From positions 1 to 64,000 of the IMG/VR virus record IMGVR_UViG_3300042010_000106: a stretch of DNA of 64,000 bases; one strand, written 5' to 3'. A program made the translations under genes and the position numbers. The notes below the pieces were generated by a model. The model did no database searches. It was given only the letters and a program-made list of their open reading frames with translations, and was not told the origin of the DNA. Position 1 is the first letter of the stretch. Each line of letters starts with the position of its first letter. Shown here in pieces: positions 49,610-63,411 of this stretch. The DNA comes from a virus.

Positions 49610-49631
49610 TCCACAGGCAACACAAACCATT

Positions 49632-49656
49632 AAGGGCGCTTCGGTGCCCTTTTTGT
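49632..49656 (+). terminator. factor-independent terminator with TTCG loop
   Basis: AAGGGCGC, loop TTCG, GTGCCCTT, then T run. Directly followed by promoter P2. Confidence 0.9.
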
Positions 49657-49670
49657 TTTTATAAAACCGC

Positions 49671-50269: not shown

Positions 50270-50538
50270 AACTGGCCCTACTCGCAATCCTGTTCGTTCC
50301 CTTTCTGGCGTCCGCTGCAACTTCTGCCCCGGCACAACCTGAACCGGCTAAAGTGGTTTCGGAACTGATCGTGGGTGAACAGGCGGTGCTGACCTACTTC
50401 AACGAAACCACGGAACAGGTTTGTACCTACGCGGCTTCGATAAACAGTACCGCGCCGTCGCTTACCTGCGTTTCGATCTATACGCTTTCTGACGATGCCC
50501 AACAAAACGTTAGGGATCGCGCCGCAGCCTTTAGATAA
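50266..50538 (+). CDS. small secreted/periplasmic protein, 90 aa
   Basis: Clear Sec signal peptide: MK, hydrophobic core LALLAILFVPFLAS, probable cleavage after ASA near residue 17. The mature part has two Cys (about 53 and 67) that could form a disulfide. Early phage periplasmic proteins often block superinfection or disturb the envelope; inferred. Coupled to the membrane protein before it. Confidence 0.65.
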   Translation: MKLALLAILFVPFLASAATSAPAQPEPAKVVSELIVGEQAVLTYFNETTEQVCTYAASINSTAPSLTCVSIYTLSDDAQQNVRDRAAAFR

Positions 50539-50544
50539 ACCTTT

Positions 50545-50574
50545 TTAGCCGTTCGCCCATAAGGGAGCGGCTAA
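50545..50574 (+). terminator. hairpin behind the secreted-protein gene
   Basis: TTAGCCG (50545-50551) pairs with CGGCTAA (50568-50574); the first T tract is missing but eight T follow at 50593-50600. Possible weak terminator before P3. Confidence 0.5.
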
Positions 50575-50610
50575 TGGGGTTGGCCTAAAAAGTTTTTTTT
50601 GGTAAACCGG

Positions 50611-54924: not shown

Positions 54925-54960
54925 GGCGCCTGAACGCCTGTAACCGTTTCAAAACCACGT

Positions 54961-54996
54961 AAGGCCCTTTGCCCTAATAGGCACGGGGCCTTTTTT
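54961..54996 (+). terminator. factor-independent terminator
   Basis: AAGGCCC (54961-54967) pairs with GGGCCTT (54986-54992), six T follow. A second hairpin GGCCTATA/TATA..GGCC and GGGGC/GCCCC follows at about 55002-55034. Confidence 0.85.
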
Positions 54997-55049: not shown

Positions 55050-55078
55050 TTGACTCTAAACGGTTCCTTTGAGATAGT
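55050..55078 (+). promoter_or_regulatory. sigma70-like promoter P4
   Basis: TTGACT (55050-55055), 17 bases, GATAGT (55073-55078). Leader CCAGATCGGC at 55084, 34 bases from TTGACT. Confidence 0.75.
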
Positions 55079-55083
55079 GGCAA

Positions 55084-55140
55084 CCAGATCGGCGATTTCG
55101 CCATTAAGATTACCCACTCACGGATCAAGGGAAGTTTAGA
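55084..55140 (+). promoter_or_regulatory. conserved 5' leader L4
   Basis: CCAGATC, hairpin GGCG-ATTT-CGCC (both sides changed relative to GGCA/TGCC, a compensatory change), CACTCACGGATC and AAGGGAAGTTT before ATG 55141. Confidence 0.7.
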
Positions 55141-55545: not shown

Positions 55546-55749
55546 ATGTTTGACGCAATCGAATCACATTGCATTGACGGCACCACACTAGTGTCGCTGC
55601 ATCTGCCTGATGATTACCACGTTCTGTACGGTTTCGTTTTTGCGGACGACGTAGAGAACCACGAAATCCCCGGCGAAGTTTATACCGCTCGCGTAGACGC
55701 ATGGGATGCAGCGGAAACAGAATTTGAGTACACGTCGCATTCGTGCTGA
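55546..55749 (+). CDS. acidic hypothetical protein, 67 aa
   Basis: ATG 55546 with GAGGT. Acidic, strand-rich (TLVSLHLPDDYHVLYGFVFA). Not recognised. An RNA hairpin element starts 2 bases after its stop. Confidence 0.6.
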   Translation: MFDAIESHCIDGTTLVSLHLPDDYHVLYGFVFADDVENHEIPGEVYTARVDAWDAAETEFEYTSHSC

Positions 55750-55751
55750 TG

Positions 55752-55797
55752 TTTCACTCATGACCGTTCTACAGAGCGAGTCATGGGGAAGCTAAGT
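55752..55797 (+). ncRNA. structured intergenic RNA element, copy B
   Basis: TTTCACTC, then stem CATGACCG with CG(A)GTCATG, apical TTC/GAG pairs and loop TACA, then GGGGAAGCTAA. Copy A at 57025 has the same flanks and apical part but a different stem, so base pairing is kept by paired changes. Probably a cis-acting mRNA element rather than a free RNA. Confidence 0.6.
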
Positions 55798-55824
55798 TAA
55801 AATCAAGGTACAAGGAAAACCGAA

Positions 55825-56058
55825 GTGACAAAGGAACCGCGTTGGTCTGTAACCGATTTGGCAGGCCACAAAAAAGTAAAAGCCTCACTGCTTTACGTAC
55901 GTGCGAAGAAAACCCCGCTGCCTACGCCGCTGGATGAAACGCGCACGGTTTTCAACGCTACCAAATCCCGCGCAGCGGCTGCGCGTTATGCCCGTTCCGA
56001 ACTGCTGGCATGGTTTGAAACCATCGACGCAATCAAACACGTTAAGAGGATCGCATGA
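55825..56058 (+). CDS. hypothetical basic protein, 77 aa
   Basis: GTG start behind CAAGGAAAA. Basic, helical (KSRAAAARYARSELLAWFET). Not recognised. Overlaps the lipoprotein start by 4 bases. Confidence 0.6.
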   Translation: MTKEPRWSVTDLAGHKKVKASLLYVRAKKTPLPTPLDETRTVFNATKSRAAAARYARSELLAWFETIDAIKHVKRIA

Positions 56059-56375
56059 AACGTTTAATGCTGCTGTGTGCTGTGTTGTCGCTTACCGCCT
56101 GTGACTGGATGGAAAGCCCGGTGGTGCATTCGTACCAAACGAACACGTACCGCGTTGTAGAAATCAATCGCCCTAAACATTTCCGCGTTGTGCTGGAAAA
56201 CGTGAAGACAGGCGAGCGACGGAAAGTCAGTGTGTCGAAACACTGCAACCGCTGGAGGGAATTGCAAATGGGTACGCAGTTCACTTTCAACGAAGTGACG
56301 TACGTATACCCGAAGAAGCAAACGTACTTCACGCAGCTTCAAAACACACGAATCATTTGCCCCGGAAATACATAA
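56055..56375 (+). CDS. lipoprotein, 106 aa
   Basis: Signal peptide MKRLMLLCAVLSLTAC with lipobox LTAC, acylated Cys16, followed by DW. The Asp after the Cys favours retention in the inner membrane under the E. coli rule. Mature part is a small beta-rich domain (TYRVVEINRPKHFRVVLENV). Early phage lipoproteins often exclude superinfecting phage by acting on receptors or injection; inferred. Confidence 0.75.
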   Translation: MKRLMLLCAVLSLTACDWMESPVVHSYQTNTYRVVEINRPKHFRVVLENVKTGERRKVSVSKHCNRWRELQMGTQFTFNEVTYVYPKKQTYFTQLQNTRIICPGNT

Positions 56376-56376
56376 A

Positions 56377-56523
56377 ATGGAATTGAACACAGCGAATATC
56401 AAAACCAAAGAACAGGCGCTGGCCTTCGCGCAGAAACGCGTGAATAGCTACAGCGTTGTTCAAGTCTGCTACGACGACCGCCCGCGCTATGCGTGGGGGC
56501 CTTGGGTTGTCTTCTACGGGTAA
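56377..56523 (+). CDS. small hypothetical protein, 48 aa
   Basis: ATG 56377, one base after the lipoprotein stop, weak ribosome site. Contains TKEQALAFAQKRVNSYSVVQ and a WGPWVVFYG end. Not recognised. Confidence 0.5.
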   Translation: MELNTANIKTKEQALAFAQKRVNSYSVVQVCYDDRPRYAWGPWVVFYG

Positions 56524-56532
56524 GGAGAAAAC

Positions 56533-56760
56533 ATGTTCGACAAAGAAGAATTGACCGAAGAACAAATCTGTTGGGCATGGCTGGCTGATCATGAAAACGT
56601 CGCCAGCGCGTCTAGCGATTTTCACATGTTCCGCGTTACATGGTACGTTGACGGTTTCGGGCGTTGCGAAACAAAAGCACCGACGCTGTTGGCTGCTGTC
56701 AAAAGCGCGATGACAACCACCTTCACAGCAACTGAATATTTTCCGGGTAAGGAGAAATAG
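56533..56760 (+). CDS. hypothetical protein, 75 aa
   Basis: AAGGAG site 7 bases upstream. Acidic; helix-strand pattern (EEQICWAWLADHENVA, FRVTWYVDGFGRCETKAP). Not recognised. Confidence 0.6.
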   Translation: MFDKEELTEEQICWAWLADHENVASASSDFHMFRVTWYVDGFGRCETKAPTLLAAVKSAMTTTFTATEYFPGKEK

Positions 56761-56761
56761 C

Positions 56762-57022
56762 ATGGGCCAAAATATTGCGTACTACAATCGCGTTCGTGAA
56801 TTCGAAGCCGGTTGGGGAAATCGCCCTGACGGTTTTCTGGTAGCCAAGACGAAAGAGCAATTCAACGACAAGGCCAAGGAAATCAAAGCGGCGGGTTCTT
56901 ACGCTGAATTTAGCACGGTCGAAGGCGAACCGATTCTGTGTCTGGTTACTGACGACATGGCCGCACAACTGGAAGCCAAAGGCACTGTCTGGCTGAACAG
57001 TAAAGATTGGTTAGTGGAATAA
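56762..57022 (+). CDS. hypothetical protein, 86 aa
   Basis: AAGGAG at the end of the previous gene. Alpha/beta (NRVREFEAGWGNRPDGFLVA, KDKAKEIKAAGSY-like helix). Not recognised. An RNA hairpin element starts 2 bases after its stop. Confidence 0.6.
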   Translation: MGQNIAYYNRVREFEAGWGNRPDGFLVAKTKEQFNDKAKEIKAAGSYAEFSTVEGEPILCLVTDDMAAQLEAKGTVWLNSKDWLVE

Positions 57023-57024
57023 CA

Positions 57025-57066
57025 TTTCACTCTTACCAGTTCTAACGAGCTGGTAAGGGGAAGTTA
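57025..57066 (+). ncRNA. structured intergenic RNA element, copy A
   Basis: TTTCACTC, stem CTTACCAG (57032-57039) with CTGGTAAG (57050-57057), apical TTC/GAG and loop TAAC, then GGGGAAGTTAA. Same architecture as copy B at 55752; both begin 2 bases after a stop codon and end about 30 bases before the next start. Confidence 0.6.
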
Positions 57067-57098
57067 AATAAACAACCAACTAAAGGAAATTCACTGTA

Positions 57099-57281
57099 AT
57101 GAAAGATCAACTGAATACCGAAATCGAAAACGGCGACCTCGTTGCGTTGACCGACAGTTCCCACAATCTGTACACGGGCACGGTCACGAAAGTTACAGCG
57201 AAGGTAATTCACATCGGGCCTGCTTGCTATCGCCGCCCTAATGGCGTGATAGTGCTGAAGAAGCGCAGCGCCCAACAGTAA
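57099..57281 (+). CDS. small hypothetical protein, 60 aa
   Basis: AAAGGAA upstream. Beta-rich, SH3-like pattern (ENGDLVALTDSSHNLYTGTV, KVIHIGPACYRR). Not recognised. Confidence 0.6.
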   Translation: MKDQLNTEIENGDLVALTDSSHNLYTGTVTKVTAKVIHIGPACYRRPNGVIVLKKRSAQQ

Positions 57282-62422: not shown

Positions 62423-62616
62423 TGATTTTTCTGGTCAACGATAAAACGCTGTGCAAAGCAGTGATTCACGGAACGGATGCCAGCGAAGAAATTGCAGCGG
62501 GCTACCGTGTGGTAACGACCGAGGAATGGGACGCGTTCAAAACCGGATCGCAACTGAAACGCGAAAAGGTGCAGAAGCCTATTTACAAGCAACGCGCCAA
62601 GAAAGAAAAGTCCTGA
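62422..62616 (+). CDS. small basic protein, 64 aa
   Basis: TAATG overlap. Basic C-terminus (KREKVQKPIYKQRAKKEKS), short alpha/beta start (MIFLVNDKTLCKAVIHGTD). Not recognised. A TGTGCA/TGCACA hairpin (62629-62650) follows. Confidence 0.6.
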   Translation: MIFLVNDKTLCKAVIHGTDASEEIAAGYRVVTTEEWDAFKTGSQLKREKVQKPIYKQRAKKEKS

Positions 62617-62679
62617 GCCGAACTTCGTTGTGCATTCTTGCGAGTGCACAGCCGAGACAAAACACAGGAGCAACAAAAC

Positions 62680-63411
62680 GTGTCTGCAAAAACTAGCCTG
62701 CAAAAAGAAGCAGAGAAAACGCACAAACGCATTCTGACAATTCTGTCTGAACAGTTGGGCGTTAAGGAAACCGAGTTGTCGCTAGAAAGCACCATGGCAG
62801 ACCACGGCGGTGATTCCCTCGACGCTGTTGAAATCATCATGGCGCTTGAGGAAGAATTCGAAGTCGAAATCACCGACTGCGAAATGGACAAGATCAAAAC
62901 GCCGCGCCAAGTAGTCGCGTTGATTCTGCCAAAGATTCACCTGCCAAGTCTTTCGTTCGATGACGCGTATATAGCTGCCTCCGAGCTGGAAGACATAAAG
63001 CCAACGAAGAAAAAACCGGCAGATAAAAAACCAGCACTGAAGAAAGTGGTACTCGCTGACGGTGCAACGTTGGTTCCCGGCGAGTCACGCAAACGGCACC
63101 TCGACGATTTGTTCGAATACACCATGAGCGATTCCGCCATGATGGAATTCGTGAAAGCCTTCAACACGGTTTTCAGCAATTCGGAATCTGCTTACCTGTA
63201 CGCTAGCAGAACGCCGAACGACAGCGATGCGTGGCGGATTCAAATGACAACCCGTCTGTCTGGTGAAGCCGTGGACGCAATTGCGCGCTTTGTAGAAGAC
63301 GCCGGTTTCTCTTTCGTCAAATCCACCGAACACACGGTGCGATTGCACGGCAGTAACCACGTCGGCATTGTCACAGCGATTCACCTGTCACTGACAACGT
63401 ACGGCCTCTAA
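62680..63411 (+). CDS. acyl carrier protein domain fused to an unknown C-terminal domain
   Basis: 243 residues; GTG 62680 with AGGAG 9 bases upstream. Residues about 8-85 are an acyl carrier protein close to bacterial AcpP: ILSEQLGVKETEL, then GGDSLDAVEIIMALEEEFEV with the phosphopantetheine-accepting Ser46, and KIKTPRQVVALI. A Lys/Pro linker (about 104-121) leads to a 120-residue domain with MMEFVKAFNTVFSNSESAYL and SLTTYGL, not recognised. ACPs carry acyl groups on a pantetheine arm added by a host enzyme. Its cargo and reason in a phage are unknown. Confidence 0.85.
   Translation: MSAKTSLQKEAEKTHKRILTILSEQLGVKETELSLESTMADHGGDSLDAVEIIMALEEEFEVEITDCEMDKIKTPRQVVALILPKIHLPSLSFDDAYIAASELEDIKPTKKKPADKKPALKKVVLADGATLVPGESRKRHLDDLFEYTMSDSAMMEFVKAFNTVFSNSESAYLYASRTPNDSDAWRIQMTTRLSGEAVDAIARFVEDAGFSFVKSTEHTVRLHGSNHVGIVTAIHLSLTTYGL

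What the first reader, a model, noticed from the sequence alone, without database searches (positions are those of the whole stretch)
55752..57066. Two copies of a covarying intergenic RNA structure
Elements at 55752-55797 and 57025-57066 share TTTCACTC, an apical TTC/GAG with a TANN loop, and GGGGAAGYTAA, but have different lower stems (CATGACCG/CG-A-GTCATG and CTTACCAG/CTGGTAAG), both able to pair. Both start 2 bases after a stop codon and end about 30 bases before the next start. Conserved loop and flanks with a changed but paired stem is the signature of a functional RNA.
Basis: seen in the sequence. Interest (0 to 1): 0.7.

Follow-up and report, generated by a model that had tools for sequence, protein, structure and literature searches.

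The report
RNase III cut-site hairpins in jumbo phages
The two hairpins belong to a family of about thirty RNA hairpins that giant Pseudomonas and Erwinia phages place between genes just after stop codons, and they match the RNase III cut sites of phages T7 and T3 so well that they are most likely sites where the host enzyme RNase III cuts phage mRNA.

Summary
Both hairpins lie at the stated coordinates and fold far better than shuffled sequence (z -5.2 and -7.6). This 312-kb phage has five members, all between 50.5 and 65.1 kb; a covariance model finds about 30 in relatives (Pseudomonas phages Lu11, HRDY3, PaBG; two IMG/VR jumbo phages; an Erwinia phage). Stems covary strongly (16 of 18 pairs with double changes), G-U outnumbers A-C inside the helix, and a U·G wobble below the apical C-G pair is kept in 27 of 27 aligned members. 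Members start within a few bases of the upstream stop codon.

What they are: a model built only from the jumbo-phage hairpins was run unfiltered over T7 and T3. Its best-scoring sites in both genomes are RNase III processing sites (T3 R1.3, R1.1; T7 R1.1, R18.5, R1.3, R0.3). Apex, wobble, placement and spacing match. Most likely these are RNase III processing signals in polycistronic early-type mRNA: a new set, in phages unrelated to T7, of a known kind. Cleavage itself is not shown. Value: the "CUU/GAG" element, conserved in T7 signals but reported dispensable in vitro, is kept in very distant phages, so its in vivo role becomes testable.

The parts
55747..55805 (+). Hairpin 1 with outer stem: TGA stop 55747-55749; outer pairs UGAU 55747-55750 / AUCA 55802-55805; main stem 55751-55792; bulged A55756 and A55779; apex UUC 55767-55769, loop UACA, GAG 55774-55776. 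Predicted RNase III cut near 55786/55787 (inferred).
   Evidence: model hits
57020..57068 (+). Hairpin 2: TAA stop 57020-57022; stem 57024-57064; bulged A57029; apex UUC 57040-57042, loop UAAC, GAG 57047-57049. Predicted RNase III cut 57059/57060, opposite the bulged A (inferred).
   Evidence: model R1 E 3e-14
62611..62669 (+). Third family member: outer stem UCCUG/CAGGA around hairpin with apex UUC 62635-62637, loop UUGC, GAG 62642-62644; directly after TGA 62614-62616
   Evidence: (E 7e-12)
50530..50590 (+). Fourth family member, divergent, extended loop; apex UUC/GAG kept; overlaps stop of the 90-aa ORF ending at 50538
   Evidence: E 1e-4; R2 E 2.6e-7
55549..55749 (+). Small ORF upstream of hairpin 1 (start uncertain)
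55825..56058 (+). 77-aa ORF downstream of hairpin 1 (GTG start), 41% identical to the Lu11 protein that follows Lu11's hairpin at 277.4 kb
56762..57022 (+). 86-aa ORF upstream of hairpin 2 (phrog_11243); its Lu11 and IMG/VR G002 orthologues are also directly followed by a member, and HRDY3's by one gene and then a member
57099..57281 (+). 60-aa ORF downstream of hairpin 2 (phrog_2251-like)
55050..55138 (+). Probable early promoter (TTGACT-17-GATAGT, consensus match only) and leader CACTCACGGATCAAGGGAAGTTTAG of the transcription unit that holds hairpins 1 and 2
   Evidence: same leader type repeated before several HRDY3 units

Best explanation
The hairpins are RNase III processing signals in polycistronic phage mRNA, built like the sites of T7 and T3. 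The host's RNase III is thought to bind the ~18-bp hairpin and cut the 3' strand near the bulge or mismatch about 10 nt below the apical U·G pair. This would separate the upstream message (left with a 3' stem that protects it) from the downstream message (left with a fresh 5' end 30-40 nt before its start codon) and set their stabilities independently. Shown: conserved covarying RNA structure, kept apical UUC/GAG (AUC/GGU in a second type) with U·G wobble, placement right after stop codons without a terminator U-run (one exception, 50532), no phage-encoded RNase III domain found, and a blind match of the family model to known T7/T3 RNase III sites. Inferred: that RNase III cuts here, the cut position, and the effect on expression.
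For: Model R2, built only from jumbo-phage hairpins, run unfiltered: in T3 (38 kb, both strands) its four matches include annotated RNase III sites R1.3 (rank 1, E 6e-5), R1.1 (rank 2) and R1 (rank 4); in 7.5 kb of the T7 early region the four best + strand matches are R1.1 (E 8e-4), R1.3, R0.3 and R1; in the rest of T7 the best match is at the R18.5 position. Phages KVP40, 2L372X and NCTB gave no match at E 0.05. T7 R1.1 reads CAUUC-GCAA-GAGUG, R1 CAUC-UGCG-GGUG, R0.3 UAUC-GCAA-GGUG, the same two apical types. In five T7 sites the recalled cut lies 10 nt 3' of the G of that pair, which in hairpin 2 is exactly opposite the bulged A. T3 sites R0.5, R1, R4.7, R6.5, R13 and R18.5 start -6 to +7 nt from a stop codon; 27 of 29 jumbo members start -7 to +2. 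Gap sizes 54-90 nt, median 68, against 62-80 in three T7 gaps. Covariation. G-U versus A-C in the stems: 31 to 2, apical U·G not counted. R1.1 is a 60-nt RNase III substrate with an internal loop from the T7 early region (PMC6121014).
Against: No cleavage data. The reciprocal model from T3/T7 sites (R3) ranks jumbo members first and second in HRDY3 and first in part of Lu11, but only at E 0.45-0.85, and finds none in the window, so the likeness rests on apex and architecture, not on the whole stem. Several T7/T3 matches of R2 are weak (E 0.05-9). Distance from the U·G to the first irregularity varies (6-10 pairs in most members), so the predicted cut register is exact in only some members. T7 cut positions are from memory.
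Confidence: 0.77

Rival explanations
1. The hairpins are binding sites (operators) for an RNA-binding protein, phage-encoded or host, that controls translation of the next gene or transcription read-through; the kept U·G and apex would be the recognition element.
For: Invariant U·G with variable loop and stem looks like a recognition element; outer stem supported (permutation p below 0.001); ribosome site 10-37 nt downstream in most members.
Against: Downstream genes differ widely and their ribosome sites are outside the stem. The same apex occurs in known RNase III sites of unrelated coliphages, which a phage-specific protein would not explain.
Confidence: 0.1
2. Hairpins without cleavage: 3'-end protectors or barriers that stop ribosomes or 3' exonucleases at gene boundaries.
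For: Very stable stems directly at stop codons.
Against: Does not explain the kept U·G and UUC/GAG or the match to T7/T3 sites; any stable stem would do.
Confidence: 0.07
3. Mobile cassette boundaries, like T4-type promoter stem-loop modules: DNA repeats at which genes are gained and lost; any RNA role is secondary.
For: IMG/VR phage G002 carries an extra gene plus hairpin between orthologues that in HRDY3 are separated by one hairpin; the two window hairpins share flanks but not stems.
Against: G-U far exceeds A-C in the helix, so selection acts on the single strand; sequences outside the hairpin are not conserved across members; no promoter in the gaps of hairpins 1 and 2.
Confidence: 0.04
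4. Intrinsic transcription terminators.
For: Stable hairpins after stop codons.
Against: No U-run follows hairpins 1 and 2, and the terminator scan does not call them; the next gene starts 30-40 nt later with no room for a promoter; true terminators with U-runs are present elsewhere (window 54960-54993, 49630-49660).
Confidence: 0.02

Closest known systems
T7 and T3 RNase III processing sites (R0.3, R0.5, R1, R1.1, R1.3, R4.7, R18.5)
   Same: ~50-60 nt hairpin with irregularity below a 9-12 bp upper stem; apical (A)UUC/GAG(U) or AUC/GGU with U·G in several of them; begin at or near stop codons in 60-80-nt gaps; between genes of polycistronic, early-type transcription units
   Different: Upper stem is AAGGUC/GGCCUU in T7/T3 and variable, often UGCGC/GCGCA, here; T7/T3 have a larger asymmetric internal loop and a longer lower stem, jumbo members a bulged A or small mismatch plus a second (UAA/GAAA-like) loop; different phage group and hosts
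Rfam RNA families (release 15)
   Same: none matched
   Different: No family reaches its threshold in the searched parts of the window, Lu11, HRDY3 or PaBG
T4-type promoter/stem-loop cassettes (PeSL; from memory)
   Same: Intergenic stem-loops in a gene-rich region with turnover of small genes
   Different: No promoter in the gaps of hairpins 1 and 2; conserved apex and RNA-type covariation
Type I-F CRISPR repeat hairpin / RNA anti-CRISPR units (from memory)
   Same: Superficial TTCACT...AGCTAAG likeness of element 1
   Different: Not tested computationally; I-F repeats have a 5-bp stem, here 18-19 bp, and the flanks are not conserved in the family

Membership tests
RNase III processing signal (T7 type) | Stable, mostly double-stranded hairpin of about two helical turns | tested here: met
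   18-19 pairs, z -5.2 and -7.6; 84% of helix cells paired over 29 sequences
RNase III processing signal (T7 type) | Conserved CUU/GAG (5'-UUC/GAG-3') element near the loop, as in T7 sites | tested here: met
   U·G in 27 of 27, UUC/GAG or UC/GG apex; T7 R1.1 and T3 R1.3 are the best blind hits
RNase III processing signal (T7 type) | Internal loop or bulge at the cut site | tested here: inconclusive
   Bulged A exactly opposite the T7 cut register in hairpin 2; irregularity 6-10 pairs below the U·G in most others
RNase III processing signal (T7 type) | Lies between co-transcribed genes, at the stop codon, no terminator | tested here: met
   27 of 29 start -7 to +2 of a stop codon; no U-run after hairpins 1 and 2; T3 annotation comparable. 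Co-transcription itself is inferred from gene spacing.
RNase III processing signal (T7 type) | Cleaved by RNase III in vitro and in vivo | not testable with these tools
   needs enzyme assay or transcript-end mapping
Intrinsic terminator | G+C-rich hairpin followed by a run of U | tested here: not met
   for hairpins 1 and 2
Known Rfam family | Covariance-model match | tested here: not met

The most novel reading that the evidence does not exclude
The kept U·G / UUC-GAG apex is read in vivo by something more than generic RNase III binding (an accessory factor, or a phage-encoded protein that steers RNase III), so unrelated phages of enterobacteria, Pseudomonas and Erwinia converge on one recognition code although the element is reported dispensable for cleavage in vitro.
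Probability: 0.15. Interest if true: 0.75.

Novelty: new member of a known kind. Interest (0 to 1): 0.55.

Why it matters
RNase III processing of phage early mRNA is a textbook T7 mechanism. Finding about thirty T7-like signals in giant phages that do not resemble T7 suggests that the strategy, and even the sequence element near the loop, recurs across very different phages. The CUU/GAG element of T7 signals was reported not to be required in vitro (title of Chelladurai et al. 1991, cited in PMC6121014; that the element meant is CUU/GAG is from memory). This natural set, with freely varying stems around a fixed apex, lets its in vivo role be tested. It also gives an annotation handle for gene-dense jumbo-phage regions where nearly all proteins are unknown.

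Tried and rejected
Megablast against phage records found nothing; relatives came through the tail sheath and the 86-aa protein. Rfam: nothing. Phage-encoded RNase III domain: none in six genomes. Terminator reading rejected. PaBG members were first aligned on the wrong strand, because loci from the genome search are not reversed; corrected. Pattern hits in unrelated short viral contigs (L045, L048-L051, L053, L056) are mostly long palindromes in unclear contexts and were not counted as members. The NCTB hit of R1 (E 0.035) lacks the apex and was dropped. The R3 window hit at 49618 is an ordinary terminator. Literature searches found no description of such hairpins in Lu11/PaBG-type phages; the library is incomplete, so this is weak evidence of novelty.

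Full report
Observation. Each folds into one hairpin of 18-19 pairs with a bulged A on the 5' side (A55756, A57029); energies are -23.4 and -23.8 kcal/mol, z -5.2 and -7.6 against dinucleotide shuffles. The stems differ at most positions and stay paired, including the base just outside the shared flanks (G-C in element 1, A-U in element 2). In the 312,325-base phage record the exact flank pattern occurs only twice.

Relatives. The window belongs to a jumbo phage whose tail sheath is about 69% identical to Pseudomonas phages HRDY3 and Lu11 and 43% to PaBG, a group that also reaches Erwinia jumbo phages at about 30%. The 86-aa protein upstream of hairpin 2 has homologues in Lu11 and HRDY3. A scan for strong hairpins in those loci, made without any motif, showed hairpins with an apical UUC-N4-GAG in the same place: right after the orthologue in Lu11, and one gene later in HRDY3.

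Family. Ten hairpins gave alignment A1: 11 of 13 RNAalifold pairs have compensatory changes, and with the lower stem 15 of 18, 0 of 500 shuffles as high. Model R1 found further members in this phage, Lu11, HRDY3 and IMG/VR record G001, then in a second IMG/VR phage of 314 kb (G002) and PaBG. Model R2, from 31 matches, adds Erwinia phage pEa_SNUABM_39 (E 8e-9), with the hairpin directly after an annotated stop codon, a likely member in Erwinia phage Yoloswag (E 4.5e-4), and a third, weak one in PaBG (E 0.02, also at a stop codon). KVP40, 2L372X and NCTB have none at E 0.05. On 29 distinct sequences 16 of 18 pairs show double changes (that alignment was fitted to the structure and so leans towards it).

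Signature. Both place a U·G wobble at the same position, present in 27 of 27 aligned members. Part of this is ascertainment, because I looked for it and the model rewards it; but among the long gaps of 45 kb of HRDY3, seven of the eight hairpins that are neither terminator nor promoter region, as I read them, carry it. In the ten pairs outside the U·G, wobble pairs outnumber A-C mismatches 31 to 2, which points to the sense RNA strand rather than double-stranded DNA. An outer stem (such as CAG/CUG) around a UAA/GAAA-like loop is present in most members; own flanks pair better than swapped flanks (permutation p below 0.001).

Place. 27 of 29 members begin between -7 and +2 of the end of a stop codon; the next start follows with a ribosome site, gap 54-90 nt, median 68. 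Hairpins 1 and 2 have no U-run and no promoter in their gaps. In this phage, all five matches in the whole record lie between 50.5 and 65.1 kb.

Identity. T7 and T3 carry annotated or classical RNase III sites between genes. R2 had seen none of them. Run without filters on T3, its ranks 1, 2 and 4 are the annotated RNase III sites R1.3, R1.1 and R1. On the T7 early region its four best + strand matches are R1.1, R1.3, R0.3 and R1, and in the rest of T7 the best match is at R18.5. Pooled over both genomes, all distinct sites scoring above 9 bits are RNase III sites. T7 R1.1 has CAUUC-GCAA-GAGUG, and R1 and R0.3 have the second apex type. The T7 element is known as CUU/GAG (from memory; the same letters read the other way). 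T3 sites also begin at stop codons. With T7 cut positions recalled from Dunn and Studier (890, 1468, 3138, 5887, 6448), the cut is always 10 nt 3' of the G of the pair; in hairpin 2 this is exactly opposite A57029.

Limits. The reverse test, a model of T3/T7 sites against the jumbo phages, is only partly positive: ranks 1-2 in HRDY3 and rank 1 in part of Lu11, at E 0.45-0.85, and nothing in the window. E-values from the short calibration are rough. No cleavage was measured, and the phages carry no recognisable RNase III domain of their own, so the enzyme would be the host's.

Mechanism proposed. RNase III binds the hairpin in the polycistronic transcript, cuts the 3' strand near the bulge, and so splits the message between the two genes, leaving a stem at the upstream 3' end and a short leader on the downstream message. 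Structure and placement are shown; enzyme, cut position and effect on expression are inferred.

Evolution. Upstream neighbours of the hairpin are conserved in several cases and downstream ones in others; in G002 a gene together with its own hairpin sits between orthologues that in HRDY3 flank a single hairpin. Why the two window hairpins share TTTCACTC and GGGGAAG while their upper stems differ is unexplained; the phage's early leader (55112-55138) carries similar letters.

Noticed in passing
window 55112-55138; HRDY3 PQ015379 near 261.5k, 263.9k, 270.3k, 271.7k, 276.3k, 282.1k: A second repeated element: early leader ACACTCACGCAATTAGGGAAGTTT directly before the first start codon of several units, behind a TTGAC...GATAC-type promoter in some of them.
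   Followed up: partly
window 55752-55795 and 57025-57067: The two hairpins share identical flanks (TTTCACTC, GGGGAAG) but unrelated upper stems, a pattern not seen in other members; the flanks resemble the early leader. Stem replacement or recombination is possible.
   Followed up: no
L055 9658-11148 (IMG/VR 3300027269_000160) against L042 21902-22916 (HRDY3): An extra 91-aa gene together with its own hairpin lies between orthologues that flank one hairpin in HRDY3.
   Followed up: partly
L042 16322 and 21836; L043 24670 (-); L056; L057: The second apex type has an identical 20-nt sequence GCGCATCTAGAACGGTGCGC in several phages and in two further viral contigs, so its loop may also be constrained.
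   Followed up: no
window 62680-63411: The gene after the third hairpin encodes an N-terminal acyl-carrier (PP-binding, PF00550) domain fused to an unknown domain.
   Followed up: no
window 54960-54993 and 49630-49660: Ordinary intrinsic terminators with U-runs.
   Followed up: no
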